DNA of 64,000 bases from Xestospongia bergquistia (taxonomy: Eukaryota; Porifera; Demospongiae; Haplosclerida; Petrosiidae). Each line of letters opens with the position of its first letter. The first letter of the stretch is position 1. This document shows, in pieces, positions 2,193 through 57,685 of the stretch. Under the pieces are notes generated by a model. The model made no database searches, was not told the DNA's origin, and worked only from the letters and a program-made list of their open reading frames with translations. The stretch spans positions 6,264,501 through 6,328,500 of the forward strand of contig OZ014412.1 of NCBI GenBank assembly GCA_963965975.1, in the 5' to 3' direction. Both the position numbers and the translations under genes were made by a program.

Positions 2193-2799
2193 ATGGCTCT
2201 TTCTAAAGATGAGATATGGGAGAAGAAAATGAAGATGTTGTTTCGTGTTTTAGATGTAACTGAAGACAACTTTATTTCTCTGGAAGATTTTGATGTCATG
2301 GGGAAACGATTTAAAGAGAATAGCACTTACAAAGAAGGAGACATTGATGACTACAAAGAAAAGTAGAGTTCATAGCAACATAGCAATAAATAGTTGAGTT
2401 GTTACTTTTATTGTCTTTATATATAGGTTTGCTGCAGGTGCCAAGATGATGGGTCTTGAACCAGGAGTGCATTGGTCTTTTGACGAATTCTCTAAAATTC
2501 ACAGAGAAAGTTTACAAAGCCCAGAGTACATGGCTGTTATGCGAGAGCTCTTTAATGCTACTTTTATCATGCTTGATAAAGATCGTAATGGTTTTATTAC
2601 ACCTAATGAATGGGAACATGCTTTTGAGGTGTTTCGTTTCAATGATCCTTCTGAAGCAAAGATGGCGTTTAGTACACTAGATCTGAACAGTGATGGTCAG
2701 ATCAGTTATCAAGAGTTCATGGACTGTGGTTTGGAATTTTTCTGCTCAGAAGATAATAAACATGGAAGTCTTGGAATGCTTGGTCCTCTACCTTCATAA
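2193..2799 (+). CDS. EF-hand calcium-binding protein, sarcoplasmic/photoprotein-like, divergent founder type
   Basis: Two exons, 2193-2362 and 2427-2799, joined by a 64-bp intron (GTAGAG...ATATAG) in phase 2, give 180 residues. Visible EF loops: EF1 at residues 21-32 (D-T-D-F-S, ending in Asp rather than Glu), EF3 at 107-118 (DKDRNGFITPNE, canonical) and EF4 at 142-153 (DLNSDGQISYQE, canonical). EF2 is degenerate. About 180 residues with sites 1, 3 and 4 is the usual plan of invertebrate sarcoplasmic Ca-binding proteins, luciferin-binding proteins and aequorin-type photoproteins. It should be a soluble Ca2+ buffer or sensor. Unlike the tandem family downstream it has no basic presequence (it begins MALSKDEIW), only one intron and a different C-terminus (GMLGPLPS). 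The ATG at 2193 was chosen because the splice and frame then give a full EF1. Confidence 0.85.
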
Positions 2800-3892
2800 A
2801 GTTATTGACAAACATTCTTTCATAAAGTATTGGCATAGTTTTTTTAAAAATGAACAATGTAGTTTCATTTTGTTTGTAAAAGGTATTTTTTAGTTAACAA
2901 TGATTACTTTTCAAACAATGATGCTATCTTCATCTCATACACTAAATGTATGTGTTACATACTTTCTAGCGGTTACAATTCAGGAGAAATTCTATACAAA
3001 ATATATCATTGATATCACATTACTCAGTATACACAGTAATAGTGGTAAGTTAATACATCACTTATTCTCCGCCATACTATGTGTTAATATATAGCTAGTA
3101 TCAGTGAATATATTGTGTGTTTCTATCTACATAGATTGCCTACAATCATTTGAATTGACTCATTAGAAAATATATAACTATCCTAATAACCATCATGGTG
3201 TGTATTGTACATGAAATAAAACTGTGTAAACACAGATAATCCTGATTTTTAATAATATCTATTGTTATTGATGATTAGAGGAAATTTATTGGAATAGTGG
3301 TTTTAATATTGTTGCACTATAGTTAAAAATGATTGATTATTTTATTAAACTGTAAAAATTAATCAGCTATAGCAACCAATTTGTAGATAGATTACTATAA
3401 TTAGAATTTAGTATTCATGTTAATTACTTATTGTACAATTTGTTGGTATGTTGTATTATTACACAACAAAGAATTACACAGTGAGTAATTCAAATGAATT
3501 TTGGATTCCACAGTAATTCATCCATGTAAGCTACAAATTATCATTGATTGTTAAAATAACATTGATGTTTACAATATATAAATCTATCAGTAATGGTACA
3601 CTACATGAAATAAAACAAACTTAACACTACATGAAGTTAGATCTGAACGAGAATGATCATCAAGGTTTGATGTAATGTAATTGTTATGAAGGATTATATA
3701 TGAAAGTAGTGTTGAAATGCTTGGACATGTGACTGTAATATACCTTGGGGCTTCAGTAAACTTAAAATTTTGTGTAAACAGTAGAAAATTAACTACCAAT
3801 CATTTTACTCCTGGTTTGTGACTCATCATATTGGCCACCTAGAATGAAGTCACATACAAAATTGTAAGATCAAATTGTGAAATTCAAAATAA

Positions 3893-3923
<31 letters not shown>

Positions 3924-4794
3924 TGACACAAAGATCCACAAACTAAAAATGATATTAAGACTGTGAGCAGTGAGTATGTTATCATGAACTGTATCCACAA
4001 CACCCACCTATTTTATTAGAGTATATTATTAACTATTCATTTATAACTATTAATAAAGTAATTTTAATACAATAAGTAACTAGAATATTAATTTGGAGGT
4101 TGTAAGCTCAATGTTAGTCATTTCAAATTGATAACTTAGAATGAACTAGTGAGAATATAGTTTAATTTAGAACAAGAGATATAGTGAAATAATTAAGCAG
4201 CCAATCAATACAGATTTAAGTTAAATTTATCATACATAGTGTTATATACAATAGTTAATATGGAACTCACATTTTGTATCCTATATATATACTGAATACA
4301 GTGAGTACTATGTGGACTTCCTTATATTAGATGTTCTATTAAAAGGTCATGAGAGGTGAACTCAATGTAATTAATTCTCTGTTGTCTTTTATATTTATGC
4401 CAAGTTTATGTTGCCATTTATATCAGTGCAGCAAATATAAGGAAAAATGTATAAATTAACATTTCAAAAGATTATATATAAGTAAAAATTATGAAGTAGT
4501 CAGGATCATATATATATATACATACATATCATCTACTGGTATATCATACAACCATTGTGACCTATATATTACTACCCTTTATATTTTGCCAACATCACCA
4601 TCATTTAAGTACTTTCTATTTTCAAATTCTATAGCTTAAAATCACGTAAAAATTATTTAAAAAAATAAAAATAAATAATAAATAAATAAGTTATAAAAAA
4701 TATTTTTTAAATTAGGTTTTGAGAAAAAACAAAACAATATGTGTCTTATGATATTAAATATGGTAGGTGTAGTGAAAAGATAAAGGTTCTCATT
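2800..4794. other. Intergenic spacer with a (TA)n tract
   Basis: About 2 kb of AT-rich DNA without a supported gene. It has a (TA)n run near 3896-3922 and an A-rich stretch near 4650-4710. AATAAA near 3213 is a possible polyadenylation signal for the 2193 gene, but it is distant. Small frames at 2900 and 3587 (minus) have no features of genes. Confidence 0.4.
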
Positions 4795-5075
4795 TTAGAT
4801 GAATGTTCCAAACATTTATTGGTAGTAGAAGCACCAGGAACATTGAGCCAGAATTTTTAGGTGGTTGTCAAGAGCTTTTCCAAGGTTCATTTCCTTTCAT
4901 CATTGGTATCCAATGCATCCAATACTCTTTTTACTTCCTCTGATGTACCAAAGTTGAGGAGTCTCATATAAATGAACCAGTTATCATATGAAATAAAGCT
5001 ATTTTTATTGGTATTATTGAAAAATATTAATAGGCCTTGGAAAGACATCAGCAATGAAGTGATTGTTAGGCCTCA
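4795..5075 (-). pseudogene. EF-hand exon 3 relic, minus strand
   Basis: Read on the minus strand this matches exon 3 of the tandem EF-hand family. The complement contains the start-of-exon sequence near 5070, the EF3 region, then a block like GCATTGGATACCAATGATG (EF4) near 4905-4925, then the FWLN.P segment near 4830-4860. It is interrupted by small indels and stops and has no intact frame. It is one of five minus-strand relics of the family, all more decayed than the plus-strand copies. Confidence 0.75.
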
Positions 5076-5671
5076 TCATAATTTACTCATTAACATTAAC
5101 CTAAGATTGTGAGATATGACTTCATGATATAAATTTATTTGTTAATTATAGACAATGATTCTAAGTAAATATATCCTATTAATGGAATATAATGGACACA
5201 TGATGTACATGTGCATGTACATTTATAAATAGTTAGCGACTTCACTGACTTGAGGAACTAATATGTATACCAGCAATATGTAGAACTATCAGTGACTCAC
5301 TCATCGACTGCATTAGTATAATATGATTAGCCACAGAGAACATTGAATGCAATTTTTGTAATTTGCTTTACTCTATTGTTTTTTGTTACCACATTTATGG
5401 TGCTGTCATTACTTGTCATGTCTTTTACAATGTAATAGTTGGTAAGTGTGATTATTGTAATTTGAATTGTAAGTATCGGTAACCAATAGTACTATACTTT
5501 CACACTGCCATTATTCTCAGCAGTATAGTAGAGCTATTTAATTACATTTATAATTAAATTAATTCTTCTCTTATCGTACATGTGATGCTATAATGCTATT
5601 ATTGTTACTATAAATAGACACAGACTGAAAGCTATTATTAGTTGTTACTATAAATAGACTCATATTAAATA

Positions 5672-5744
<73 letters not shown>

Positions 5745-6395
5745 TTTATTTAGTAATGATGTTAGATTACATGATGAGACATTTTGTAGGCTAATTTAAA
5801 AAAATGAATGAAATTCATTTAAATTTTCTACTACATTGTATTTATATAATTCAACATTCATTCCAAGTCCAATATTTTAGAGCTCACATTTAATAAGAGT
5901 TAACTAGCATCTTCCAGCTTCTTTTAATACATAGTATATGCTAATAATTTTTTTAATAATTAATAATAATTAATAATAGTCTCTAATAGATTAAAACTAT
6001 GATTATGTAATTGACTTATAAAATTTAGTTTAGGTCTATCAGTGGTTAAGAGAATCTATATAATATGTTGTTTATTATAAACAACTCCAGCTGTAATTAA
6101 CCTAATAAAATCATATAACCAATTATACAAATGCACTAAACGAATAATGTTGCAATTCATTTTACGTAAACAATCTTGATGGAGTAAACCTATTCTTCTA
6201 TTGGATAAACATGTTGTCATAAATCATTGTATAGTAATTATTTGTATATTGGTATCCCAAAACCATTGAAGTTGACTCAATCAATATGTATAATTGTAGC
6301 TTCTATTGTAGTACATTTCATCTATATGACAGGACTGATATATTTTATTATCATGTAATCTAGGTGGGCGTATGCATACATATATCTTTCTGGCT
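5076..6395. other. Intergenic spacer with a long (TA)n tract
   Basis: AT-rich, no gene seen. A (TA)n microsatellite of about 80 bp lies at 5663-5742. The stretch around 6240-6395 resembles the 5' flank of the tandem EF-hand genes (TTGTAGTACATTTCATCTATATGAC, then AGGTGGGCGT at 6362), so a gene start probably once stood here. Confidence 0.5.
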
Positions 6396-6480
6396 CAATG
6401 CCCCAGGTGCTGATACTATTGACATCATGTATGGACCTGTTAACTAGAACAGGAATTCTTGAAATCTCCACGATATATGA
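6396..6480 (+). pseudogene. EF-hand exon 3 tail fragment, plus strand
   Basis: Only the last 60 or so coding bases of exon 3 remain (GGCTCAATGCCCCAGGTGCT through ATGTATGGACCTGTTAACTAG). The family's usual 3' flank follows (ACAGGAATTCTTGAAATCTCC and the CCCCC/TTTAAAAAATTA stretch) to about 6700. Everything between the 5' flank at about 6370 and this point is deleted. Confidence 0.8.
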
Positions 6481-7983: not shown

Positions 7984-8716
7984 ATGGCAATGATAAGGAG
8001 GCTACTCTTGACTGCTACTCAATACAAATATCCTCTTCTACGTGCTCCTATTATTATTACTTCTAGGAAGTACTCATTATGATGAAATTTGGGCAAAGAA
8101 GCACAGAAAATTTTTCGAGGAGACTCTTGGTGTTGATTCAACTAAAAACGAAAAGGCGAATCTAAAAAATGCATACAAATATGCAGATTTATTTGCCAAA
8201 GAGAAGACCTTTGATCCCAAGGATGTGGAAGCTTTTAGAGACAGGTAATATTTATCCTATAAATTGTCTGTTGCATGATGTAAATATAAATAGTTTAATC
8301 AAAATCTTAAAGTTTCTTGGATTTACTGATGGAGAAGAATTGTCTTTTGAAGAATACTTTGAAAATGTAAAAACTTCTCTTCAGAATGATAAAGTACATT
8401 ATCAAATATTGAAGTGTTAGTTGTATTTTTTACTTTACAGTCAACACTCATGCCACTTGTTTATAATGTTAATATGGCCGTTTTTAATTGTCTTGATTCT
8501 AATAAAGACAGTTTCGTCACCTATAATGAGTGGCTAATCTACATGAGACTTCTCAACTTTGGCTCAACAGAAGAAATGAGGCAAATATTTGATGCAATAG
8601 ATACCAATGGTGATGGTAAATTAAGCTGGGAAGAGTTTTATCAAGTCAATAGTGATTTCTGGTTAAATAGCCCCAGTGCTGATACTACTGACGCCATGTT
8701 TGGTCGTGTTAATTAA
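7984..8716 (+). pseudogene. EF-hand family copy 1, presequence frameshifted
   Basis: Exons are 7984-8244, 8294-8393 and 8441-8716, with introns of 49 and 47 bp. The presequence (MAMIRRLLLTATQYKYP...) is present. A 5-bp loss relative to the other copies (CTGCA missing after TCATTAT, near 8079) throws exon 1 out of frame and gives an immediate TGA. From 8080 on the second frame encodes a good family body, then exon 2, then an exon 3 with canonical EF4 (DTNGDGKLSWEE), an EF3 with Ser at the Gly position, and the end DAMFGRVN. There is no in-frame ATG for the body before the shift. It is therefore either a pseudogene or a gene using another start. Exon 3 begins STLMPLVYNVNMAV, a variant shared only with the copy at 45962. 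Confidence 0.8.
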
Positions 8717-10398: not shown

Positions 10399-10704
10399 AT
10401 GGCAATGATAAAGAGGCTATTCTTGACTACTACTCAATACAAATATCCTCTTCTACATGCTCCTATTATTATTACTTCTAGGAAGTACTCATTATCTACA
10501 GATGAAAGTTTTGAGTTGAACCACAAAAATTTTTCAAAGAGACTCTTGGCGTTGATGCAGATATAAAAAAAGGAAGTCACAAAAATGTACATGAACATAT
10601 AGGTTGGTATGCCAAAGAGAAGACCTTTGATCCCAAGGATGTGGAAGCTTTTAGTAACAGGTAACATTTATCTTATAAATTGACAGTTTTATGATGTAAA
10701 TAGT

Positions 10705-15281: not shown

Positions 15282-15453
15282 TTGAAGTGTCTCTCGAAGG
15301 TTTTGATATTATTGTAGTTCGATGAACGTTGTAATCCAAATTGTACTCGTTCGTTCACGAAGGTTCAGTCTTATTGTAATTCGATGAGCGTCGTAATCCG
15401 AATTCTACTCGTTCGTCCACTGGGCGGTTCTCTTCTGTCTTCCGTTCGAAGTG

Positions 15454-15471: not shown

Positions 15472-15474
15472 AAA

Positions 15475-15761: not shown

Positions 15762-16196
15762 ATAGTTAAATCGAAATCTTGAATAGCTTAATCCAAGGGC
15801 TAAAGTTTCTTTGATTTACTGATAGAGAAGAATTGTCATTTGAAGATTACTTTGAAAATATAAAAAACTTCTCTTCAGAATGATAAAGTACATAATCAAA
15901 TATTGAAGTGTTAGTTGTATTTTTGTTTTTCATCAACAATTGAGTCACTTGCTGATAAGGTTTTTAACTGTCTTGATTCTAATAAAGGCAGTTCCATCTC
16001 CTATGATGAGTGGCAAATCTATATTGTGCTTCTCAATTTTCACTCAATAGAGGCAATGAGGCAAATATTTGATACATTGGATACCAATGGTGATGGTAAA
16101 TTGAACAGAGAAGAGTTTGATCAAGTCAATAGATCTTTCTGGCTCAATACCCCATGTGCTGATACTACTGACATCATGTATGGACCTGTTAACTAG

Positions 16197-22485: not shown

Positions 22486-23216
22486 ATGGCAATGATAAGG
22501 AGGCTACTCTTGACTACTACTCAATACAAATATCCTCTTCTTCGTGCTCCTATTATTATTACTTCAAGGAAGTACTCATTATCTGAAGATAAAAGTTTTG
22601 AGTTGAAGTACAAAAAAATTTTCAAAAACACTCTTGGTGTTGATGCAGATAAAAAAGAAAAAGCAAGTCTGAAAAATGTACATGAACATATAGAGTTGTA
22701 TACCAAAGAGAAGACCTTTGATCCCAAGGATGTGGAGGCTTTTAGAAACAGGTAACATTTATCTTATAAATTCTCAGTTTTATGATGTAAATAGTTTAAT
22801 CAAAGTGTTCAAGTACCTTGGACTTGCTGATGGAAAAGAATTTTCATTTGAAGAATTCTTTGAAAATGTACAAACTTCTCTTCAGAATGATAAAGTACAT
22901 AATCATATATTGAAGTGTTAGTTGTATTTTTATTTTCCAGTCAACAATTGCATCACTTTCTCATGAAGCTGTTATGGGTGTTTTTAATTGTCTTGATTCT
23001 AATAAAGACAGTTTCATTTCCTATGATGAGTGGCTAATCTATATGAGGCTTCTTAATTTTGGCTCAACAGAGGAAATGAGGCAAATGTTTGATGCATTGG
23101 ATACCAATGGTGATGGTAAATTGAGCAGGGAAGAGTTTGGTCAAGTCAATAGATCTTTCTGGCTCAATGCCCCAGGTGCTGATACTACTGACATTATGTA
23201 TGGACCTGTTAACTAG
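22486..23216 (+). CDS. EF-hand protein with mitochondrial-type presequence, intact (copy 3)
   Basis: Exons 22486-22751, 22795-22894 and 22941-23216 (introns 43 and 46 bp, GTAACA..TAG and GTACAT..CAG, phases 2 and 0) give 213 residues. Residues 1-30 (MAMIRRLLLT...TSRKY) are basic and hydroxylated with no acidic residue and end RKY|S, an R-x-Y cleavage pattern, so import into mitochondria is predicted. The body has four EF-hand units: EF1 (GVDADKKEKASL) degenerate, EF2 in exon 2 without a proper loop, EF3 at 141-152 (DSNKDSFISYDE, Ser at the usual Gly) and EF4 at 176-187 (DTNGDGKLSREE, canonical). The C-terminus FWLNAP...MYGPVN resembles the FW...YG end of sarcoplasmic and photoprotein-type EF-hand proteins. 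AATAAA at 23283 is a likely poly(A) signal. Likely role: a Ca2+ buffer or sensor. Confidence 0.88.
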
Positions 23217-24706: not shown

Positions 24707-24971
24707 ATGGGAATGATAAGGAGGTTACTCTTAACTGCTACTCAATACAAATATTCTCTTCTATGTAGTCCCATTATTATTACTTCTAGGAAGTACTCAT
24801 TATCTGCAGATAAAAGTTTTGAGTTAAAGCACAAAAATTTTTTCAAAGAGACTCTTGGTGTTGATACAGATAAAAAAGAAAAAGCAAGTTTCAAAAATGT
24901 ATATGAACATATAGAGTTGTATGCCAAAGAGAAGACCTTTGATCCCAAGGATATGAAGCTTACAGAAACAG
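24707..24971 (+). pseudogene. EF-hand copy 4, exon 1 only
   Basis: The presequence (MGMIRRLLLTATQYKYSLLCSP...) and EF1 region are open to about 24940. A lost base in AAGGATGTGGAAGC (here AAGGATATGAAGC) then shifts the frame. After the donor GTAACAT the sequence switches to intergenic DNA, so exons 2 and 3 are gone. Confidence 0.85.
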
Positions 24972-25649: not shown

Positions 25650-26561
25650 ATGGCTACCCCTTCTGTTGTTCCTGCTAGTAATCTCAAGTGTAGTATTTGT
25701 TTGGACCTCTTTAGTGATCCTCGTGTTCTTCCTTGTCTTCATATATATTGTTTGAAGTGTCTACAAGGACTTGTGAGTAAAGAAAAGAACTATCTCAGTT
25801 GTCCTCAATGTAGAGCTAAACATGAGATACCAAAAGGAGATGTGGCTAATTATCTTTGTGATCTCTCCATTTTACCAGAGTTAGAGGCAGCCAAAGCTAC
25901 TTCAAGGAAAGAAGAGGCAAAGATGTGTGGTTTATATACCTCTGGTGAGGTAGCTGTAGGTTACTGTCAAGACTGTGGTGAGTATTTGTGTAGTTATTGT
26001 CAAGACATGGACAAGAAAGTAAAAACGTTTGCTACTCACAAAATCACTTCAATGGAAGCCTTGTCAACAATTACATATGCTACTAAACAGTCTGCCTCAT
26101 GTCCTTATCACTCAGAGTACAAACTAGAGATCTTTTGTAAGACTTGTGATACACTAGTATGTTCAATGTGTATGTTAGAATCTACTCATAAAAGACATAA
26201 CTATGATTTCTTGAAGAATGTTCACCATGAGTTGACAAAACGAATTAAATCAATGACACAAAGCATCAAGAAAAAGGGAAAAGAATTCAAATCTTGTTTT
26301 GTTTCAGTTGAGAAATTTGAGCAGCGAGTGTGTAGTCAACGTGATAAGCTTGAAGCTGAGATAATTGCAACATGTGATGAATATATACCAAAGATACAAG
26401 CAATGAAGGAGGAGCTTTTGAAACAAGTTGAGTCCAAGTTTACTGAAGACAGCAAGACAATATGGGCAAGTAAAGATCATCTTGAAGTTTTATTATCTCA
26501 AGTTGACTACTACTCAATACAAATACCTTCTTCTTCGTGCTCCTATTATTATTACTTCTAG
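25650..26561 (+). CDS. TRIM-type RING / double B-box / coiled-coil protein, truncated and fused to EF-hand DNA
   Basis: One exon, 303 residues. RING finger with Cys14-x2-Cys17-x11-Cys29-x-His31-x2-Cys34-x2-Cys37-x13-Cys51-x2-Cys54 (C3HC4). A first B-box runs about 93-130 (Cys93, 106, 109, 114, 117, His130) and a second 151-183 (CPYH...CKTC...CSMC...H-x2-H). A charged helical coiled-coil region follows, about 195-285. This is the N-terminal half of a TRIM E3 ubiquitin ligase. Such proteins usually continue into filamin, NHL or B30.2 domains, which are absent. At about 26500 the sequence changes to the presequence region of an EF-hand exon read in another frame, adding a short tail (DYYSIQIPSSSCSYYYYF) before the stop. 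The gene is therefore 3'-truncated by recombination. It might still make a dominant-negative-like RING/B-box protein; that is speculation. Confidence 0.85.
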   Translation: MATPSVVPASNLKCSICLDLFSDPRVLPCLHIYCLKCLQGLVSKEKNYLSCPQCRAKHEIPKGDVANYLCDLSILPELEAAKATSRKEEAKMCGLYTSGEVAVGYCQDCGEYLCSYCQDMDKKVKTFATHKITSMEALSTITYATKQSASCPYHSEYKLEIFCKTCDTLVCSMCMLESTHKRHNYDFLKNVHHELTKRIKSMTQSIKKKGKEFKSCFVSVEKFEQRVCSQRDKLEAEIIATCDEYIPKIQAMKEELLKQVESKFTEDSKTIWASKDHLEVLLSQVDYYSIQIPSSSCSYYYYF

Positions 26562-26743
26562 GAAGTATTCATTATCTGCAGATGAAAGTTGTAAGTTGAA
26601 GCACAAAAAATTTTTCCAAGAGACTCTTAGTGTTGATGCAGATAAAAAAGAAAAGCAAGTCTCAAAAATGTACATGAACATATAGAGTTGTGTGCCAAAG
26701 AGAAGACCTTTGATCCCAAGGATGTGGAAGCTTTTAGAAACAG
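26503..26743 (+). pseudogene. EF-hand copy 5, exon 1 fragment fused to the TRIM-type gene
   Basis: Begins within the presequence (TTGACTACTACTCAATAC) without a start codon and overlaps the end of the RING/B-box frame. One base is lost in GAAAAAGCAAGTC (frameshift). It ends at AAACAG, followed by TTTAAATATATCTTTAATTAACAGG instead of an intron. The same abnormal junction occurs in the copies at 30933 and 35046, so the three share an ancestor. Confidence 0.88.
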
Positions 26744-27566: not shown

Positions 27567-28287
27567 ATGCTAAGGAGGTTACTCTTGACTGCTACTCAAT
27601 ACAAATATCCTCTTCTACGTGCTCCTATTATTATTACTTCTAGGAAGTACTCATCATCTACAGATGAAAGTTTTGAGTTGAAACACAAAAAAAAATTCCA
27701 AAACACTCTTGGTGTTGATGTGGATAAAAAAGAAAAAGCAAGTCTCAAAAATGTATATGAACATTTAGAGTTGTATGCCAAAGAGAAGACCTTTCATCCT
27801 GAGGATGTGGAAGCTTATAGAAACAGGTAACATTTACCCTATTAATTCTCAGTTTTATGATATAAATAGTTTAATCAAAGTGTTAAAGTATCTTGGATTT
27901 GCTGATGGAAAAGAATTGTCATTTGAAGAATACTTTGAAAATGTACAAACTTCTCTTCAGAATGATAAAGTACATAATCATATATTGAAGTGTTAGTTGT
28001 ATTTTGTTTTCCAGTCAACATTTGTGTCGCTTTCTGATGAAGCTGTTATGGGTGTTTTTAATTGTCTTGATTCTAATAAAGACAGTTTCATTTCCTATGA
28101 TGAGTGGCTAATCTATATGAGACTTCTTAATTTTGGGTCAACAGAAGAAATGAGGCAAATGTTTGATACATTGGATACCAATGGTGATGGTAAATTGAGC
28201 AGAGAAGAGTTTGATCAAGTCAATAGATCTTTCTGGCTCAATGCCCCAGGTGCTGATACTACTGACATCATGTATGGGACCTGTTAG
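27567..28287 (+). CDS. EF-hand protein with presequence, altered start and end (copy 6)
   Basis: Exons 27567-27826, 27870-27969 and 28015-28287 (introns 43 and 45 bp) give 210 residues. A deletion of about 140 bp has joined upstream CATGCTATGC to TAAGGAGG, removing the usual MAMI start, the 5' leader and the AGGTGGGTGT box. The join creates a new in-frame ATG (MLRRLLLTATQ...), so the presequence is still encoded. An inserted G near the end (ATGTATGGGACC) changes the last residues from GPVN to GTC. EF3 is DSNKDSFISYDE and EF4 DTNGDGKLSREE. AATAAA lies at 28358. Coding is intact, but whether it is transcribed without the conserved promoter block is open. Confidence 0.72.
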
Positions 28288-30932: not shown

Positions 30933-31185
30933 ATGGCAATGATAAGGAGGTTACTCTTAATTACTACTAAATACAAATATCTTCTTCTATTATTACTTGT
31001 AGGAAGTATTCATTATCTACAGATGAAAGTTTTAAGTTGAAGCACAAAAAATTTTTCAAAGAGACTCTTGGTGTTGATGTAGATAAAAAAGAAAAAGCAA
31101 GTCTGAAAAATGTACATGAACATATAGAGTTGTATGCCAAAGAAAAGACCTTTGATCCCAAGGATGTGGAAGCTTTTAGAAACAG
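30933..31185 (+). pseudogene. EF-hand copy 7, exon 1 only, frameshifted
   Basis: ATG at 30933 and MAMIRRLLL are present. About 15 bases of the presequence are missing (CTTCTTCTATTATTACTTGTAGG), with a resulting frameshift, though the EF1 region is open again from about 31037. It ends AAACAG|TTTAAATATATC, the same abnormal end as the copies at 26503 and 35046. Exons 2 and 3 are absent. Confidence 0.85.
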
Positions 31186-32112: not shown

Positions 32113-32842
32113 ATGGCAATGATGAGGAGGCTATTCTTGACTACTACTCAATACAAATATCCTCTTCTACGTGCTCCTATTATTATTACTTCTAGGAAGT
32201 ACTCATTATCTGCAGATAAAAGTTTTGAGTTGAAGTACAAAAAAATTTTCAAAAACACTTTTGGTGTTGATGCAGATAAAAAAGAAAAAGTAAGTCTCAA
32301 AAATGTATATGAACATTTAGAGTTGTTTACCAAAGAGAAGACCTTTGATCCCAAGGATGTGGAAGTTTTTAGAAACAGGTAACATTTATCTTATGAATTC
32401 TCAGTTTTATGATGTAAATAGTTTAATCAAACTGTTCAAGTACCTTGGACTTGCTAATGGAAAAGAATTGTCATTTGAAGAAATCTTTAAAAATGTACAA
32501 ACTTCTCTTCAGAATGATAAAGTACATAATCATATATTGAAGTGTTAGTTGTATTTTGTTTTCCAGTCAACATTTGTGTTGCTTTCTGATGAAGCTGTTA
32601 TGGGTGTTTTTAATTGTCTCGATTCTAATAAAGACAGTTTCATTTCCTATGATGAGTGGCTAATCTATATGAGACTTCTTAATTTTGGCTCAACAGAGGA
32701 AATAAGGCAAATGTTTGATGCATTGGATACCAACGGTGATGGTAAATTGAGCAGGGAAGAGTTTGGTCAAGTCAATAGATCTTTCTGGTTCAATGCCCCA
32801 GGTGCTGATACTACTGACATTATGTATGGACCTGTTAACTAG
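32113..32842 (+). CDS. EF-hand protein with mitochondrial-type presequence, intact (copy 8)
   Basis: Exons 32113-32378, 32422-32521 and 32567-32842 (introns 43 and 45 bp) give 213 residues. Very close to the copy at 22486: the same presequence pattern (MAMMRRLFLTTTQYKYP..RKYS), degenerate EF1 (GVDADKKEKVSL), exon 2 with a changed loop region (LANGKELSFEEIF), EF3 DSNKDSFISYDE (Ser for Gly) and canonical EF4 DTNGDGKLSREE. The C-terminus is RSFWFNAP...MYGPVN. The AATAAA seen after the 22486 copy is changed to AACAAA here. The close match of both gene and 3' flank to the 22486 copy indicates recent duplication or gene conversion. Confidence 0.87.
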
Positions 32843-33640: not shown

Positions 33641-35045
33641 TACTGTTTGAATAGTAATATAATTAATATGGAATTGACAGTTCATTTGCTTCAACAAACA
33701 ACTCATAAACAACATGTATATGGTATGTAAGATTATCCTGTTATAAATTCCACAATAAGAATCATCACACACAGGGCCAACATCAATGAAAGTTTTTGTG
33801 TCTAACTAATGAATGAGATATTAAGCAGAATCTTAATAGCTCTGACATTACTACATGACTGTCAAATTTAAATCAGGTTTAACAGCAGTGTTTCTGTTAA
33901 CCAGGGTTAATCATAGAAATGTTGGATAATGACATCACTTAACATCATAGTGATGCTATCACAGGAAAAATTATGTCGAGAACCACTAACAAGATATATT
34001 GCCATCATTACATAACTGTAGACAATATAGCAGGGATTGTCTAAACAAGTTTTAGTATTTGTTATAATACATAATGTAATGAAGTAAATAAACTAAGATA
34101 TTATTAATGCCATCTGCTATATCATTAATTATTACCAATTGTATTATGGAAGCCAAGTAGGACAGTCTAAGATCAGCAAATGTTAGTACTGATTCCTAGG
34201 CCTACTCCCTAACTATAGCATTAAAATATATGACCAGATATTTCGTCTGTCCCACTGGGGTGAGACCAAAGGTCAGACTGTCCCACTGACCATATGCTAA
34301 TTGCAATTTAGTCAGGTCTAAATTCATCTGATTTAAGCACAAAAGTAGTTGCTAATATTAGACCTTGTTTAAGTTTGTCCAGTATTTTAGCTGTTGTTCA
34401 TTGGACACAGCTGTCATGAATATAAAGGTTATAATTATACTATTCTTTGTATTAATAGCTTTTCTCTGAGATATGTCCCAGGCTTTTATGCAATTACTCA
34501 TACTATAATAGAAATATTATATGCATTAGTAAGTTAATTGTATGCTAAGTCCTCTCCAAAGATTTTTTCCATCATATGGTCTACTTCATGATTTAATCCT
34601 TTGTAGTAGTCATCGATTGTATTAAATTGACCTTCATTTTTCTCTGTTTCATCATAATTTATCACAATATCACATTTTCATCATCATTGTCATAGCCATT
34701 TGTTTCTTCATCATTCTCTTCTAAGGTAATTTCTTTGGTTTTTTTTTTGTTTTTTTATTAATAAAACACAAAAGACACTGAATAGCAAAGCTAATATAAA
34801 AAGTATCAATAGCAATACTGAATTCGTAATGAGAATAATATAACATAAGAAGTAAAGGATTAATAATAAGTAATGATATATATTGATAGATGAATTAATA
34901 AATAAATATGAACAATATGTATGCTATATTCCTGATTGTTCTAAAATAAATAAGAAATATTTTACTTTAACTGACTTACAGAGTTGAGATCTTTGAATGA
35001 GGTGGGAAGGGAATTCCACAGGGAGACAGCACTGGGAAGGAAGGA
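33641..35045. repeat. Large repeated block R, copy 1
   Basis: Starts with the family intergenic words, then from about 33914 (GAAATGTTGGATAATGACATCAC) continues through TGTCCCACTGGGGTGAGACC (near 34250) and CAATACTGAATTCGTAATGAG (near 34815) to LINE-like DNA at 34860-35040. Related copies: 38495-39540, 49010-49200 and 49553-49990 (partial), 51414-52365, 55523-56560 and 63297-64000. The first bases match the end of the receptor-tail frame at 63085-63324, so the block appears to contain the 3' end and 3' flank of that gene. Confidence 0.75.
34600..34850 (-). pseudogene. Transmembrane segment and acidic tyrosine-containing tail, receptor-like remnant
   Basis: On the minus strand a hydrophobic stretch (LILFILALLFSVFCVLLIKK type) is followed, after an A-rich run that shifts the frame, by KEITLEEN.EETNGYDNDDE. 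Another frame then gives NYDETEKNEGQFNT..DYYKGL. This looks like the end of a single-pass receptor. The A-run length differs among the repeated copies, and in none could I join the segments in one frame, so I treat it as broken. Parallel copies: about 39150-39430, 52060-52345 and 56190-56470. Confidence 0.35.
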
Positions 35046-35158
35046 GTTGATGTGGATAAAAAAGAAAAAGCAAGTCTCAAAAATGTACATGAACTAATAG
35101 AGTTGTATGCCAAAGAAAAGACCTTTGATCCCAAGGATGTGGAAGCTTTTAGAAACAG
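35046..35158 (+). pseudogene. EF-hand copy 9, internal exon 1 fragment joined to a LINE end
   Basis: EF-hand exon 1 sequence starts abruptly at GTTGATGTGGATAAA, directly after LINE 3' sequence (GGGAAGGAAGGA). Short shared bases at the join (GTTGA.G) suggest microhomology. It ends AAACAG|TTTAAATATATC like the copies at 26503 and 30933. Confidence 0.82.
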
Positions 35159-36428: not shown

Positions 36429-37159
36429 ATGGCAATGATAAGGAGGCTACTCTTGACTACTACTCAATACAAATATCCTCTTCTACGTGCTCCTATTATT
36501 ATTACTTCTAGGAAATACTCATCATCTACAGTTGAAAGTTTTGAGTTGAAGCACAAAAAATTTTTCCAAAACACTTTTGGTGTTGATGTGGATAAAAAAG
36601 AAAAAGCAAGTCTCAAAAGTGTATATGAACATGCAGATTTATATGCCAAAGAGAAGACCTTTCATCCTGAGGATGTGGAAGCTTATAGAAACAGGTAACA
36701 TTTATCTTATAAATTCTCAATTTTATGATGTAAATAGTTTAATCAAAATCTTAAAGTATCTTGGATTTGCTGATGGAGAAGAATTATCATTTGAAGAATA
36801 CTTTGAAAATATACAAACTTCTCTTCAGAATGATAAAGTAGATAATCAAATATTGAAGTGTTAGTTGTATTTTTGTTTTCCAGTCAACACTTGTGTCACT
36901 TGCTGATGAGGCTATTATGGGTGTTTTTAACTGTCTTGATTCTAATAAAGATGGTTTCATCTCCTATGATGAGTGGCTAATCTATATGAGGCTTCTAAAT
37001 TTTGGCTCAACAGAAGAAATGAAGCAAATATTTGATACATTGGATACAAATGATGATGGTAAATTGAGCAGGGAAGAGTTTCATCAAGTCAGTAAATCTT
37101 TCTGGCTCAATGCCCCAGGTGCTGATACTACTGACATCATGTATGGACCTATTGACTAG
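36429..37159 (+). CDS. EF-hand protein with mitochondrial-type presequence, intact, all-canonical EF3/EF4 (copy 10)
   Basis: Exons 36429-36694, 36738-36837 and 36884-37159 (introns 43 and 46 bp) give 213 residues. Presequence MAMIRRLLLTTTQYKYP...RKYS. EF1 is degenerate (GVDVDKKEKASL). Exon 2 encodes LIKILKYLGFADGEELSFEE. EF3 is DSNKDGFISYDE with Gly at position 6, and EF4 DTNDDGKLSREE, so both C-terminal loops should bind Ca2+ well. It ends MYGPID. It groups with the copies at 40609 and 52662 by exon 3 sequence (STLVSLADEAIM, EEMKQIFDTL, FHQVS). It is the closest presequence-bearing relative of the two presequence-less genes. Confidence 0.88.
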
Positions 37160-40608: not shown

Positions 40609-41264
40609 ATGGCAATGATAAGGAAGCTATCTACAGATGAAATTTTCACACTGAAACACAAAAAAATTTTCAAAGAGACTCTTGGTGTTGATATAGATAA
40701 AAAAGAAAAAGCAAGTCTCAAAAGTGTATACAAACATGCAGATTTATATGCCAAAGAGAAGATCTTTGATCCCAAGGATGTGGAAGTTTATAAAAAAAGG
40801 TAACATTTATCCTATAAATTCTCAATTTTATGATGTAAATAGTTTAATCAAAATCTTAAAGTATCTTGGATTTGCTGATGGAGAAGAATTATCATTTGAA
40901 GAATACTTTGAAAATGTACAAACTTCTCTTCAGAATGATAAAGTACATAATCAAATATTAAAGTGTTAGTTGTATTTTTGTCTTCCAGTCAACACTTGTG
41001 TCACTTGCTGATGAGGCTATTATGAGTGTTTTTAACTGTCTTGATTCTAATAAAGATGGTTTCATCTCCTATGATGAGTGGCTAATCTATATGAGGCTTC
41101 TAAACTTTGGCTCAACAGAAGAAATGAAGCAAATATTTGATACATTGGATACAAATGGTGATGGTAAATTGAGGAGGGAAGAGTTTCATAAAGTCAGTAG
41201 ATCTTTCTGGCTCAATGCCCCAGGTGCTGATACTACTGACATCATGTATGGACCTATTGACTAG
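40609..41264 (+). CDS. EF-hand protein without presequence, intact (copy 11)
   Basis: Exons 40609-40799, 40843-40942 and 40989-41264 (introns 43 and 46 bp) give 188 residues. It starts MAMIRKLSTDEIF: the first five residues of the presequence family are kept, but about 25 residues (the basic leader through RKYS) are missing in frame. The protein should therefore stay in the cytosol. EF1 is degenerate (GVDIDKKEKASL), EF3 canonical (DSNKDGFISYDE) and EF4 canonical (DTNGDGKLRREE). It ends MYGPID. Exon 1 ends VYKK instead of AYRN. The upstream region differs from that of the presequence copies and carries the NRF-1-type palindrome. Confidence 0.86.
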
Positions 41265-42907: not shown

Positions 42908-43304
42908 ATGGCAATGATAAGGAAGTTACTCTTGACTGCTACTCAATACAGATATCTCTTCTATGTGCTACTATCATTACTACTTCTAGGAAGTACTCAT
43001 TATTTGCAGATAAAAGTTTTGAGTTGAAGCACAAAAAATTTTTCAAAGAGCTCTTGGTGTTGATGTGGACAAAAAAAGCAAGTCTCAAAAATGTATATGA
43101 TCATATAGAGTTGTATGCCAAAGAGAAGATCTTTGATCCCAAGGATGTGGAAGCTTTTAGAAACAGGTAACATTTATCTTATAAATTGTCAGTTTTATGA
43201 TGTAAATAGTTTAATTAAAGTGTTTGATCAAGTCAATAGACCTTTCTGGCTCAATGCCCCAGGTGACAAATACTACTGACATCACATATGAACCAGTTAA
43301 CTAG
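42908..43304 (+). pseudogene. EF-hand copy 12, internally deleted
   Basis: MAMIRKLLLTATQYRY starts normally. A lost C then shifts the presequence frame, two bases are lost in AAAGAGACTC, and further bases are lost in the GATAAAAAAGAAAAA run. Intron 1 is present. Exon 2 stops after about 14 bases (TTTAATTAAAGTGT) and jumps directly to the end of exon 3 (TTGATCAAGTCAATAGACC), deleting intron 2 and EF3/EF4. The stop TAG is at 43302-43304. Confidence 0.88.
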
Positions 43305-45961: not shown

Positions 45962-46672
45962 ATGGCAATGATAAAGAGGCTACTCTTGACTGCTACTCAA
46001 TACAAATATCCTCTTCTACGTGCTCCTATTATTATTACTTCTAGGAAGTATTCATTATCTGCAGATGAAAGTTTTAAGTTGAAGCACAAAAAATTTTTCA
46101 AAGATGCTCTCGGTGTTGATGTAGATAAAAAAGAAAAAGCAAGTCTCAAAAATGTATATGAACATATAGAGTTGTATGCTAAAGAGAAGACCTTTGATCC
46201 CAAGGATGTGGAAGCTTATAGAAACAGGTAACATTTATCTTATAAATTGTCAGTTTTATGATGTGAATAGCTTAATCCAAGGGTTAAAGTATATTGGATT
46301 TACTGATGAAAAAGAATTGTCATTTGAAGAATACTTGGAAAATATAAAAGATTCTCTTCAAAATAATAAAGTACACAATCATAATTATATTGAAGTGTTA
46401 GTTGTATTTTTGTTTTCTAGTCAACATTTTTGCAACTTGTTTATAATGTTAATCTGGCCATTTTTAACTGTCTTGATTCTAATAAAGACGGTTTCATCTC
46501 CTATGATGAGTGGCTAATCTATATGAGGCTTCTAAATTTTGGCTCAACAGAGGAAATGAGGCAAACGTTTGATGCATTGGATACCAATGGTGATGGTAAA
46601 TTGAGCAGGGAAGAGTTTGATCAAGTGAATAGATCTTTCTGGCTCAATGCCCCTGGTGCTGATACTTACTGA
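45962..46672 (+). CDS. EF-hand protein with presequence, C-terminally truncated (copy 13)
   Basis: Exons 45962-46227, 46271-46370 and 46421-46672 (introns 43 and 50 bp) give 205 residues. Presequence MAMIKRLLLTATQYKYP...RKYS, degenerate EF1, and an exon 2 divergent from the others (LIQGLKYIGFTDEKELSF). Exon 3 starts STFLQLVYNVNLAI like the copy at 7984. EF3 DSNKDGFISYDE and EF4 DTNGDGKLSREE are both canonical. An extra T in GATACTTACTGAC shifts the frame at the end, so the usual ADTTDIMYGPVN becomes ADTY and stop. If the FW...MYG tail contributes to folding, as in related EF-hand proteins, this copy may be impaired. Confidence 0.8.
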
Positions 46673-50020: not shown

Positions 50021-50144
50021 TACATGTATTTGTGGCACAAACAGTATGTTCATACTGACTTAGGAATCTAAGCAATGCGAATAACTTTGTCATATTACGA
50101 GATAAAATATGACACTCCTGTTAAAAAAACTTAATATTTTTATA

Positions 50145-50682: not shown

Positions 50683-50689
50683 CATTATA

Positions 50690-51243
50690 ATCTACTACAT
50701 TTAATACACTATTCTATTAACTATTACTTACTGTTATCTACTACATTTAATACACTATTCTATTAACTATTACTTACTGTTATCTACTACATTTAATACA
50801 CTATTCTATTAACTATTACTTACTGTTATCTACTACATTTAATACACTATTCTATTAACTATTACTTACTGTTATCTACTACATTTAATACACTATTCTA
50901 TTAACTATTACTTACTGTTATCTACTACATTTAATACACTATTCTATTAACTATTACTTACTGTTATCTACTACATTTAATACACTATTCTATTAACTAT
51001 TACTTACTGTTATCTACTACATTTAATACACTATTCTATTAACTATTACTTACTGTTATCTACAACATTTAATACACTATTCTATTAACTATTACTTACT
51101 GTTATCTACCACATTTAATACACTATTCTATTAACTATTACTTACTGTTATCTACAACATTTAATACACTATTCTATTAACTATTACTTACTGTTATCTA
51201 CCACATTTAATACACTATTCTATTAACTATTACTTACTGTTAT
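50690..51243. repeat. 46-bp minisatellite, about 12 copies
   Basis: The unit ATCTACTACATTTAATACAC followed by TATTCTATTAACTATTACTTACTGTT repeats with a 46-bp period. The last copies alternate ACTACATTT, ACAACATTT and ACCACATTT. It ends at TTATAAATTCCACAATAAGAATC, the entry into block R. Confidence 0.95.
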
Positions 51244-52661: not shown

Positions 52662-53316
52662 ATGGCAATGATAAGGAAGCTATCTACAGATGAAAGTTTC
52701 GCACTGAAACACAAAAGATTTTTCAAAGAGACTCTTGGTGTTGATATAGATAAAAAAGAAAAAGCAAGTCTCAAAAATGTATACAAACATGCAGATTTAT
52801 ATGCCAAAGAGAAGATCTTTGATCCCAAGGATGTGGAAGCTTATAGAAACAGGTACATTTATCCTATAAATTCTCAATTTTATGATGTAAATAGTTTAAT
52901 CAAAATCTTAAAGTATCTTGGATTTGCTGATGGAGAAGAATTATCATTTGAAGAATACTTTGAAAATATACAAACTTCTCTTCAGAATGATAAAGTAGAT
53001 AATCAAATATTGAAGTGTTAGTTGTATTTTTGTTTTCCAGTCAACGCTTGTGTCACTTGCTGATGAGGCTATTATGGGTGTTTTTAACTGTCTTGATTCT
53101 AATAAAGATGGTTTCATCTCCTATGATGAGTGGCTAATCTATATGAGGCTTCTAAATTTTGGCTCAACAGAAGAAATGAAACAAATATTTGATACATTGA
53201 ATACAAATGATGATGGTAAATTGAGCAGGGAAGAGTTTCATCAAGTCAGTAAATCTTTCTGGCTCAATGCCCCAGGTGCTGATACTACTGACATCATGTA
53301 TGGACCTGTTAACTAG
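52662..53316 (+). CDS. EF-hand protein without presequence, intact; intron 1 readable (copy 14)
   Basis: Exons 52662-52852, 52895-52994 and 53041-53316 give 188 residues. It starts MAMIRKLSTDESF, lacking the basic leader. Intron 1 has lost one base (GGTACATTT instead of GGTAACATTT) and is now 42 bp. This removes the usual in-frame TAA and keeps the frame, so unspliced RNA would add 14 residues and stay open through exon 2. EF3 is canonical (DSNKDGFISYDE). EF4 starts with Asn instead of Asp (NTNDDGKLSREE), which should weaken Ca2+ binding. It ends MYGPVN. Closest relatives are the genes at 40609 and 36429. Confidence 0.85.
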
Positions 53317-54724: not shown

Positions 54725-54975
54725 TCTTGCTGTATCTCAGATTATAGTTGACATTAAAGTCGTTCCCTTGCCCTATCTTAGATTATAGTTGATATTAAAG
54801 TCATTCCCTTGCCCTATCTTAGATTATAGTTGACATTAAAGTCGTTCCCTTGCCCTATCTTAGATTATAGTTGATATTAAAGCCATTCCTTTGCCCTATC
54901 TTAGATTATAGTTGACATTAAAGTCGTTCCCTTGCCCTATCTTAGATTATAGTTGACATTTAAGTCATTCCATCA
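54725..54975. repeat. 41-bp minisatellite, about 6 copies
   Basis: Same unit as at 50145-50682 (TTAGATTATAGTTGACATTA). Copies alternate TTGACATTAAAGTCGTTCCC and TTGATATTAAAG.CATTCC. The preceding 150 bp (from CACTATTTAGTACATGTATT) also match 50011-50145. Confidence 0.92.
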
Positions 54976-54984
54976 TTATAATCT

Positions 54985-55350
54985 ACTACATTTAATACAC
55001 TATTCTATTAACTATTACTTACTGTTATCTACTACATTTAATACACTATTCTATTAACTATTACTTCCTGTTATCTACAACATTTAATGCACCATTCTAT
55101 TAACTATTACTTACTGTTATCTACTACATTTAATACACTATATTCTATTAACTATTACTTACTGTTATCTACTACATTTAATACACTATTCTATTAACTA
55201 TTACTTACTGTTATCTACTACATTTAATACACTATATTCTATTAACTATTACTTACTGTTATCTACTACATTTAATACACTATTCTATTAACTATTACTT
55301 ACTGTTATCTACTACATTTAATACACCATTCTATTAACTATTACTTACTG
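54985..55350. repeat. 46-bp minisatellite, about 8 copies
   Basis: Same unit as at 50690-51243, with two copies lengthened by 2 bp (CACTATATTCTATT). It ends at TTATAAATTCCACAATAAG like the other arrays. Confidence 0.93.
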
Positions 55351-56564
55351 TTATAAATTCCACAATAAGAATCATCACACACAGGGCCAACATCAATGAA
55401 AGTTTTTGTGTCTGACTAATGAATGATATATAAAGCAGAATCTTCATAGCTCTGACATTACTACATGACTGTCAAGTTTAAATCAAGTTTAACAGCAGTG
55501 TTTCTGTTAACCAGGGTTAATCATAGAAATGTTGGATAATGACATCACTAACATCATAGTGATCTTATCACAGGAAAAATTATGTCAAGAACCACCAACA
55601 AGATATATTGCCATCATTACATAACTGCAGACAATATAGCAGGAATTGTCTAAACAAGTTTTAGCATTTGTTATAATACATAATGTAATGAAGTAAATAA
55701 ACTAAGATACTATGAATGCCATCTGCTATATCATTAATTAATACCAATTGTATGGAAGCCAAGTAGGACAGTCTAAGGTCAGCAAATGTTAGTACTAATT
55801 CCTAGGCCTATTCTCAAACTATAGCATTAAAATATATGACCAAATATTTCGTCTGTCCCACTGGGATGAGACCAAAGGTCAGACTGTCCCACTGACCATA
55901 TGCTAATTGCAATTTAGTCAGGCCTAAATTCATCTGATTCAAGCACAAAAGTAGTTGCTAATATTAGACCTTGTTTAAGTTTGTCCAGTAATTTAGCTGT
56001 TGTTCATTGGACACAGCTGTCATGAATATAAACGACATAACTATGTCATAAATATAAAGGTTATAATTATACTATTCTTTATATTAATAGCTTTTCTCTG
56101 AGATATGTCCCAGGCTTTTATGCAATTACTCATACTGTAATAGAAATATTGTATGCGTTAGTAAGTTAATTGTATGCTAAGTCCTCTCCAAAGATTTTGT
56201 CCATCATATGGTCTACTTCATGTTTTAATCCTTTGTAGTATTCATCCATTGTATTAAATTGACCTTCATTTTTCTCTGTTTCATCATAATTTATCACAAT
56301 ATCACATTTTCATCATCATTGTCATAGTCATTTGTTTCTTCACCATTCTCTTCTAAGATAATTTCTTTGTTTTTTTGTTTTTTTTATTATAAAACACAAA
56401 AGACACTCAATAGCAAAGGTAACATAAAGAGTATCAATAACAATACTGAATTCGTAATGAGAATAATATAACATAAGAAGTAAAGGATTAATAATAATTG
56501 ATGATATTGATAGATGAATTAATAAATAAATATGAACAATATGTATGCTATATTCCTGATAGTT
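55351..56564. repeat. Large repeated block R, copy with LINE
   Basis: Parallels 38330-39540 closely, including the CGACATAACTATGTCATAAATATAAAGG duplication near 56030. The minus-strand transmembrane/tail remnant is at about 56190-56470. Confidence 0.75.
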
Positions 56565-57065: not shown

Positions 57066-57074
57066 GTACATCTA

Positions 57075-57245
57075 TACTGACAAGTGATGTCTTTGTATAC
57101 ACAGTTGCTACAATGATAGCTAGGTCCAAATTCTTTTCCTGCTTGATGGCAACCACATCTACCTTTACATCTTTTAGCAAGATCTTTTAGCGGTTACTTT
57201 CATGTTGATGTTAGTGATACCATTATCTGTATCTTATAATAGTTG
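57075..57245 (-). pseudogene. CXC-type cysteine-rich exon fragment, second copy
   Basis: Minus-strand counterpart of 40016-40210: AGKEFGPSYHCSNC-like sequence with a small tandem duplication (GATCTTTTAGC, near 57180) that breaks the frame upstream. It is joined to the LINE at the same point as in the other copy. Confidence 0.5.
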
Positions 57246-57412
57246 TAACTTATTATATACAAGTCGCCATAGTGAATGTCACAAAAGTCATATTTGTTTA
57301 TCAATTATATAAAGGCTGTGCATCAAAGTCTAGTTCACCTAATACTTACTGTGCAAATTGTACTGTGGTCATTCTTGCCTCATAGTGCATAGTGATTTGC
57401 AATATCTAAGTA

Positions 57413-57414
<2 letters not shown>

Positions 57415-57471
<57 letters not shown>
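57415..57471. repeat. (TA)n microsatellite
   Basis: About 28 TA repeats in the upstream region of the EF-hand stub at 57659. Confidence 0.95.
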
Positions 57472-57478
<7 letters not shown>

Positions 57479-57658
57479 CTCAATAGCTATTGCCCAAAGA
57501 AAGGTGGACAACTCTTGCACCCATAACCAGTTAAAAAACCAAATTACTAACATATTAATATAATCCCGAACGAGGTAATTATAGCACATGCGCAAGGGTT
57601 AGATGAGAAATAAAAGGGGTTAGATGAGAAATCTGACTACTCAGAGCTGCTGAACATA

Positions 57659-57685
57659 ATGGCAATGATAAAGAAGCTATCTACA
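57659..57685 (+). pseudogene. EF-hand copy 15, first nine codons only
   Basis: The promoter region, 5' leader and start (MAMIKKLST) of a presequence-less copy are present. At 57685 the sequence changes to unrelated DNA (TTGAACCTTGTAAGAGTGG). Its NRF-1-type site has a mutation (GCACATGCGC). Confidence 0.85.

What the first reader, a model, noticed from the sequence alone, without database searches (positions are those of the whole stretch)
2193..57685. Expansion of an EF-hand family with mitochondrial-type presequences
About 15 plus-strand copies share exon plan, 42-50 bp introns and an N-terminal peptide rich in Arg and Ser/Thr, without acidic residues, ending RKY|S. Related sarcoplasmic or photoprotein-type EF-hand proteins are normally cytosolic, so a tandem family apparently targeted to mitochondria is unexpected and may represent an undescribed Ca2+-handling system.
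Basis: partly seen in the sequence, partly recalled or inferred. Interest (0 to 1): 0.75.

Follow-up and report, generated by a model that had tools for sequence, protein, structure and literature searches.

The report
Calcium proteins with mitochondrial address tags
A cluster of duplicated animal genes encodes small calcium-binding proteins, of a type normally found in the cell fluid, most of which carry what looks like a removable mitochondrial import tag, while some copies lack it.

Summary
The peptide is real; the copy number was overstated. Seven three-exon genes in the window read through: 5 tagged (22486, 27567, 32113, 36429, 45962), 2 untagged (40609, 52662); the other copies are broken or partial. 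A second cluster 5.2 Mb away has 5 more tagged genes, down to about 52% identity. The protein is a sarcoplasmic calcium-binding protein (SCP) relative; the family profile aligns to Nereis SCP from residue 2, so the 30-residue tag is extra. Tags are acid-free with 4-6 basic residues, and 7 of 10 end R-x-Y|S, the documented MPP/Icp55 motif; this genome's HSP60 and ATP synthase beta read RSY|A and RRF|A there. Against: the hydrophobic moment does not exceed shuffles, deep comparisons show no protein-level constraint on the tag, and no predictor, RNA or localisation was available. Untagged copies best fit a 25-codon deletion. Not unique: Lingula and unnamed contigs hold SCP relatives with similar extensions. 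Best reading: mitochondrial matrix calcium buffers or sensors with two working EF-hands, plus cytosolic offshoots. New variant of a known kind.

The parts
22486..23216 (+). Tagged SCP-like gene, 213 aa: exons 22486-22751, 22795-22894, 22941-23216; MAMIRRLLLTTTQYKYPLLRAPIIITSRKY|SLSED...
   Evidence: gene model; whole-genome matches
27567..28287 (+). Tagged gene, 210 aa: exons 27567-27826, 27870-27969, 28015-28287; starts MLRR, C-terminus frameshifted (..MYGTC)
32113..32842 (+). Tagged gene, 213 aa: exons 32113-32378, 32422-32521, 32567-32842
36429..37159 (+). Tagged gene, 213 aa: exons 36429-36694, 36738-36837, 36884-37159; exons 2-3 group with the untagged 52662 and 40609 (gene conversion likely)
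45962..46672 (+). Tagged gene, 205 aa: exons 45962-46227, 46271-46370, 46421-46672; C-terminus cut (..GADTY)
40609..41264 (+). Untagged family member, 188 aa (MAMIRKLSTDE...): exons 40609-40799, 40843-40942, 40989-41264; NRF1-like palindrome at 40533
52662..53316 (+). Untagged family member, 188 aa: exons 52662-52852, 52895-52994, 53041-53316; NRF1-like palindrome at 52588; EF4 position 1 is Asn
22486..22575 (+). Presequence-coding segment (codons 1-30) of the reference copy, cleavage expected after RKY
7984..8716 (+). Copy with all three exons and a tag, but the frame shifts after SRKYSL; NRF1-like palindrome at 7898
10399..10658 (+). Exon-1 fragment with tag, frame broken
15785..16193 (+). 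Damaged exon 2 plus exon 3, no exon 1 found
24707..24958 (+). Exon-1 fragment with tag
26497..26741 (+). Exon-1 fragment with partial tag, frame broken, overlapping the end of the RING/B-box ORF
30933..31183 (+). Exon-1 fragment with tag, frame broken inside the tag
35043..35156 (+). Partial exon-1 fragment
42908..43164 (+). Exon-1 fragment with tag, frame broken inside the tag
2193..2799 (+). Neighbouring SCP-like gene without presequence (exon 1 about 2193-2363, exon 2 from about 2428), a different subfamily with three Pfam EF-hand_1 stretches; its relative sits beside the second cluster

Best explanation
These genes encode SCP-type EF-hand proteins made as precursors with a 30-residue mitochondrial presequence. 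After import through the general presequence route, MPP would cut after R-K and an Icp55-type peptidase would remove Tyr30, leaving a protein of about 183 residues that begins where ordinary SCPs begin. In the matrix its C-terminal EF3-EF4 pair would bind Ca2+ entering through the uniporter, as a soluble buffer or sensor; EF1 and EF2 are degenerate. A 25-codon in-frame deletion most likely produced untagged copies that would stay in the cytosol. Shown: gene structure, tag composition and motif, SCP homology, EF-hand loop residues, a second tagged cluster. Inferred: import, cleavage, matrix location, Ca2+ binding, physiological role, direction of the deletion.
For: Family profile positions 36-211 of 212 align to Nereis SCP residues 2-172 of 174 (E 1.4e-22). 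First acidic residue at 33-37 in 10 of 10 tagged models, at 10 in 3 of 3 untagged. R-x-Y|S in 7 of 10 tagged models; motif R-X-F/Y/L|A/S described in PMC8847149 (passages seen). Own HSP60 reads ..VRSY|AKE and own ATP synthase beta ..QRRF|ASA (cleavage points inferred). The ATG has A at -3 in 11 of 12 cluster-1 loci listed (G in 32113) and G at +4 in 12 of 12; no in-frame Met between Met1-4 and residue 68 in the 10 tagged models. EF3 canonical in 13 of 13, EF4 in 12 of 13. Mature region under purifying selection, cluster 1 against the divergent subgroup: omega 0.21-0.39. MCU family present. With the divergent subgroup taken as outgroup, tagged members lie on both sides of the root.
Against: Hydrophobic moment is not above composition shuffles for 5 of 5 tags tested (131-371 of 1000 as high at 18 residues; own HSP60 41, own ATP synthase beta 216); the N-terminus of the untagged 2193 protein scores as high (0.47, 136 of 1000), so the measure does not discriminate. 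Tag omega is 0.37 within cluster 1 but 0.81-1.06 in the four other comparisons, with unusually low dS: protein-level constraint is not shown. 3 of 10 tagged models have K or Q instead of the -3 Arg. A longer N-terminus is not excluded: unspliced, 36429 and 40609 have an in-frame ATG before the upstream stop; with the likely leader intron removed, 6 of 9 modelled loci do (two of them broken copies), while 42908, 45962 and d11559142 do not. No RNA, proteomics or localisation. The untagged copies are not one clade on either exon tree.
Confidence: 0.6

Rival explanations
1. The N-terminal peptide is not an import signal; the proteins are ordinary cytosolic SCPs with a basic N-terminal tail.
For: Hydrophobic moment not above shuffles; no protein-level constraint in the tag in deep comparisons; untagged copies exist with open frames; SCPs are usually cytosolic (recalled).
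Against: Acid-free basic tag, in 7 of 10 with an MPP/Icp55-type site, directly in front of the SCP domain, kept in two clusters down to about 52% identity, with the same site type in own HSP60 and ATP synthase beta.
Confidence: 0.2
2. The peptide is a secretory or peroxisomal (PTS2-like) signal.
For: Basic start followed by LLL; RLLLTTTQ partly resembles the PTS2 nonamer (pattern recalled).
Against: Best 10-residue hydropathy is only 1.3-1.8 in the 10 tagged models, with no continuous hydrophobic core; position 9 of the PTS2-like stretch is Tyr or Gln, not Leu/Ala/Phe (by eye; consensus recalled).
Confidence: 0.07
3. The array is mostly decaying duplicates; one or two genes matter and the tag is a relic.
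For: Seven of the 14 exon-1 loci in the window are broken or partial; within the five tagged cluster-1 genes omega is 1.2 in exon 2 and 0.76 in residues 31-88; two tagged genes have damaged C-termini.
Against: Three full-length 213-aa tagged genes in the window and five tagged models in cluster 2, one of them (d11596494) without the first ATG; exon 3 omega 0.24-0.40 in all five comparisons; EF3 loop intact in 13 of 13.
Confidence: 0.13

Closest known systems
Sarcoplasmic calcium-binding protein (SCP), Nereis 1q80/2scp
   Same: Whole mature length aligns, best hit by profile and by single sequence, similar C-terminal GP(V/L) tail
   Different: 30-residue N-terminal tag; EF1 and EF2 both degenerate; tandem expansion
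Coelenterazine-binding protein (2hps) and photoproteins (aequorin, obelin, clytin, mitrocomin)
   Same: EF-hand relatives that align over most of the mature length
   Different: Weaker match than SCP; EF1 not canonical here; photoprotein C-terminal Pro (recalled) absent
SCP-like proteins of Lingula anatina (e.g. P0058, P0061, P0017) and unnamed contigs (P0062, P0136, P0137, P0138, P0147)
   Same: SCP domain behind a basic, acid-poor N-terminal extension; P0062 has RLF|STSS
   Different: Extensions are longer (33-95 residues in the 18 counted) and by eye not the same sequence; location unknown
EF-hand regulators of mitochondrial Ca2+ (MICU1-3, ATP-Mg/Pi carriers, EFHD1, Miro)
   Same: EF-hand proteins acting at mitochondria (MICU recalled; ATP-Mg/Pi carrier, EFhd1 and Miro seen only in search listings)
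   Different: Those are membrane, intermembrane-space, cytosol-facing or actin-binding proteins (partly recalled); these would be soluble SCP-type matrix proteins
Ilborin, sponge EF-hand protein (PMC8864356, outline and passages seen)
   Same: Sponge EF-hand family
   Different: About 570-586 aa, TIM barrel plus EF-hand domain, reported cytosolic; domain plan differs

Membership tests
Sarcoplasmic calcium-binding protein | Full-length sequence similarity to a solved SCP | tested here: met
   Profile 36-211/212 to 1q80 2-172/174, E 1.4e-22, best PDB hit
Sarcoplasmic calcium-binding protein | Four EF-hand units with two or three binding Ca2+ (recalled) | tested here: inconclusive
   EF3 canonical 13/13, EF4 12/13, EF1 and EF2 0/13; Pfam finds 3 EF-hand_7 stretches in 22486; binding not measured
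Sarcoplasmic calcium-binding protein | C-terminal G-P-L/V tail, as in Nereis | tested here: inconclusive
   GP(V/I) in cluster 1 members with intact ends and in d11559142/d11566144; FGSS in the divergent subgroup; lost in 27567 and 45962
Sarcoplasmic calcium-binding protein | Cytosolic location | not testable with these tools
   no localisation data
Cleavable mitochondrial presequence | N-terminal, net positive, acid-free segment | tested here: met
   0 D/E in first 30, 4-6 K+R in 10 of 10
Cleavable mitochondrial presequence | Amphipathic helix | tested here: inconclusive
   moment 0.43-0.50 (18 residues) in 5 tags, not above shuffles; untagged 2193 N-terminus 0.47
Cleavable mitochondrial presequence | MPP/Icp55 cleavage motif R-X-F/Y/L|A/S | tested here: met
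   7 of 10 models; the other 3 have K or Q for R and fit only a no-R F/Y|S/A form described for plants
Cleavable mitochondrial presequence | Import and cleavage | not testable with these tools
   needs experiment
Secretory signal peptide | Continuous hydrophobic core | tested here: not met
   max 10-residue hydropathy 1.3-1.8 in 10 tagged models; judged against recalled signal peptides, no predictor run
Ca2+-activated photoprotein | Coelenterazine-binding site and C-terminal Pro (recalled) | not tested
   only ranked lower than SCP by profile

The most novel reading that the evidence does not exclude
Animals have a largely unnoticed class of soluble SCP-type EF-hand proteins imported into the mitochondrial matrix, arising more than once (this genome, Lingula, others), that act as dedicated protein Ca2+ buffers or sensors; in this genome loss of the presequence by deletion sends paralogues back to the cytosol.
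Probability: 0.33. Interest if true: 0.75.

Novelty: new variant of a known kind. Interest (0 to 1): 0.52.

Why it matters
Matrix Ca2+ regulates mitochondrial enzymes, and matrix buffer power is discussed as possibly high and in need of measurement (PMC11550887, passages seen). EF-hand proteins built for the matrix would be a natural protein buffer open to direct test, and close paralogues with and without the tag are a natural experiment in compartment switching.

Tried and rejected
Presequence borrowed from another gene: a 134-base leader-plus-presequence query matched 21 places, 21 of 21 in the two clusters, so no DNA-level donor was found. Coding sequence upstream of the ATG: unspliced frames end in a stop within 24-72 nt in 17 of 17 loci, with an in-frame ATG before it in 36429 and 40609; with the likely leader intron removed all 9 modelled loci also reach a stop, 6 of them with an ATG before it; not shared by all, so not adopted. 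Initiation after the tag: no suitable Met. One origin of the untagged copies: they share the deletion junction and promoter type, but the trees do not group them (2 and 3 changes), probably through gene conversion between 36429 and 52662/40609; one origin is likely, not shown. Promoter palindrome as a mitochondrial marker: TTGCGCATGCGCAA occurs at 28 places in the genome against 0 for the reversed pattern, 3 of the 28 in this cluster, but it precedes untagged copies and 7984, and Nrf-1 motifs are enriched in Amphimedon promoters generally (PMC4773876, passages). Citrate synthase as a third in-species control: N-terminus not resolved. Sponge identity: no tool named the organism. Ilborin considered and set aside. 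No structure prediction was run.

Literature: searches. One search (SCP plus 'mitochondrial targeting') returned 0 papers; the listings of 15, 34 and 72 showed nothing on mitochondrial SCPs (in 72 none of the 12 listed papers, out of 7,106, contains the SCP term). I read passages of PMC8847149, PMC11550887, PMC8864356 and PMC4773876 only. The library lacks most subscription journals.

Full report
Place. The window is C2:6264501-6328500 of an unnamed 146.5-Mb, 21-contig genome. Windows of 4 kb run 27-41% GC.

Gene models. I located exons with tblastn on the window plus flanks and on a second region and modelled splicing. Thirteen three-exon genes result: seven in the window, one just outside (65310), and five on C2 near 11.56-11.60 Mb. 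All use GT-AG introns, phase 2 then phase 0, with exon 2 of exactly 100 nt. Introns are 42-43 and 45-50 bp in cluster 1, and 47-48 and 47-53 bp in cluster 2. Ten of the thirteen carry the N-terminal tag (five in the window, five in cluster 2) and three (40609, 52662, 65310) do not. Of 14 plus-strand exon-1 loci in the window the other seven are broken or partial, so 'about 15 copies' is too many. The gene at 2193 belongs to another subfamily; its relative lies beside the second cluster at C2:11555472-11554881 (minus), 87-88% identical by exon, which suggests that a block holding both gene types was duplicated.

What the protein is. Pfam gives EF-hand pairs. The best solved structure is Nereis sarcoplasmic calcium-binding protein, both for one sequence (E 1.6e-11) and for a family profile (E 1.4e-22; the profile also held one Lingula protein). 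Coelenterazine-binding protein and photoproteins come next. The profile aligns from position 36 to residue 2 of SCP, so the tag is extra to a complete SCP domain. EF3 is canonical in 13 of 13, EF4 in 12 of 13, EF1 and EF2 in none.

The tag. In 10 of 10 tagged models the first 30 residues hold no Asp or Glu and 4-6 Arg+Lys, and the first acidic residue is at 33-37; in the untagged three it is at 10. R-K-Y|S or R-Q-Y|S stands at the expected site in 7 of 10; the divergent cluster-2 subgroup has K-Q-Y|S or Q-Q-Y|S. A review (PMC8847149, passages) gives R-X-F/Y/L|A/S as the combined MPP and Icp55 site, and F/Y|S/A without Arg for some plant proteins. As in-species controls I read HSP60 (MLRSARLYRPVARLLTNNRPPVRSY|AKE) and ATP synthase beta (..YQRRF|ASAPAAK, one intron removed) from the same genome; both carry the motif, with cleavage points inferred. 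A third control, citrate synthase, could not be resolved. The uniporter family MCU is present (one exon match, E 1.5e-33).

Results against targeting. Maximum hydrophobic moments (0.43-0.50 over 18 residues in the five tags tested) are not higher than in shuffles of the same letters (131-371 of 1000 as high). Own ATP synthase beta fails likewise (216 of 1000) and own HSP60 passes (41 of 1000), while the untagged 2193 N-terminus scores 0.47 (136 of 1000), so the measure does not separate tagged from untagged here. Tag omega is 0.37 within cluster 1 and 0.81-1.06 in the four other comparisons. Between cluster 1 and the divergent subgroup the tag has dN 0.29 and dS 0.29, whereas the rest of the protein has dS 0.8-1.9 and omega 0.21-0.39 (ten tagged models). 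Amino-acid constraint is thus not shown in the tag in deep comparisons; instead its synonymous sites are unusually conserved (29-98 of 5000 codon shuffles as extreme in four deep pairs; 1433 and 677 of 5000 in two close pairs).

Start site. The first ATG has A at -3 in 11 of 12 cluster-1 loci listed (G in 32113) and G at +4 in 12 of 12. Reading upstream without splicing, a stop comes within 24-72 nt in 17 of 17 loci; 36429 and 40609 have an in-frame ATG before it. A leader intron (GTGGGTG...CTCAG) is likely in tagged copies. If it is removed, six of nine modelled loci (10399, 22486, 30933, 32113, 36429, d11566144) show an ATG before the next stop and three (42908, 45962, d11559142) do not, so a longer N-terminus is possible for some but is not shared. 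After Met1-4 the next in-frame Met in the tagged models is at residue 68-157.

History. With the divergent subgroup taken as outgroup (my choice of root), tagged members lie on both sides of the root, so the tag is best read as ancestral to the family. The untagged copies are 25 codons shorter in frame, share the junction MAMIRK-L-S, and share a promoter type with (TT)GCGCATGCGC, which 7984 also has. They are not one clade: exons 2-3 of 36429 group with 52662 and 40609, which points to gene conversion. A DNA search with leader plus tag found 21 matches, all in the two clusters.

Elsewhere. A single-sequence search gave four fragments of this kind of locus (P0001-P0004), and the only hit named as an animal protein was a Lingula SCP-like protein. 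Profile searches (the 120 best of 333 and of 259 listed) brought the stored proteins to 233. Of these, 30 cover over three quarters of the SCP domain and have a terminal GP(L/V)-like tail, and 18 of those 30 have an N-terminal extension of 33 residues or more with at most one acidic and at least four basic residues in the first 30; 12 do not. Thirteen of the 18 are Lingula proteins (names) and five come from unnamed contigs. This count is biased, because the query profiles themselves held tagged proteins. By eye the extensions are not the sequence of the tag seen here, so repeated gain is likely but untested.

Verdict. A small SCP-like family with a credible mitochondrial presequence, partly broken up by duplication, with untagged offshoots. 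Matrix import is the best-supported reading (about 0.6); a matrix Ca2+ buffer or sensor role is inference. It is a new variant of the SCP kind.

Noticed in passing
window 22486-22575 and equivalents: Synonymous sites in the presequence codons are unusually conserved across the two clusters (29-98 of 5000 codon shuffles as extreme in four deep pairs, not in two close pairs); nucleotide-level constraint or local gene conversion, unexplained.
   Followed up: partly
window 7898, 40533, 52588; also C2:6329736: NRF1-like palindrome GCGCATGCGC upstream of the untagged copies and of 7984; the 14-mer TTGCGCATGCGCAA occurs at 28 places in the genome, 3 of them here; the 52588 site ends CATGG and is not among them.
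   Followed up: partly
C1:27.75-28.05 Mb (L039-L041): Another EF-hand cluster of single-exon genes. Of four copies read, three start MDTSFT.. and one (27964587, minus) starts with a basic acid-free extension MQRRLLTLVSSSTMLRVLRPPVMIRM before CTSFTD; its presequence-like part aligns by eye with the 5' leader of the others.
   Followed up: partly
C1:25952227-25952394 (-), C1:25959973-25960074 (-), C2:4934598 and C2:4946790 (-): Short fragments resembling this family outside the two clusters (77%, 59%, 58% and 58% identity).
   Followed up: no
window 10944-15308 (-): Open retroelement ORF of 1455 aa with zinc knuckle, protease, reverse transcriptase, RNase H and integrase domains; described only.
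   Followed up: no
window 25587-26558 (+): RING plus B-box ORF (TRIM-like) inside the array, its end overlapped by an exon-1 fragment of the EF-hand family.
   Followed up: no
window 190-846, 49105-51379, 54843-55490: Minisatellite-like arrays: a repeat that gives long open frames at the window start, and 46-bp and 41-bp repeats between EF-hand copies.
   Followed up: no
window 57798-58088 (+): ORF of 97 aa with a hydrophobic segment and a tail with tyrosine motifs (GPIYDDVKL, NTAYGYIN); no Pfam match at 0.001.
   Followed up: no
window 5066-4818, 7614-7368, 18320-18049, 42415-42293 (all -): Decayed minus-strand exon-3 pieces; by eye the last three resemble the divergent cluster-2 subgroup.
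   Followed up: no
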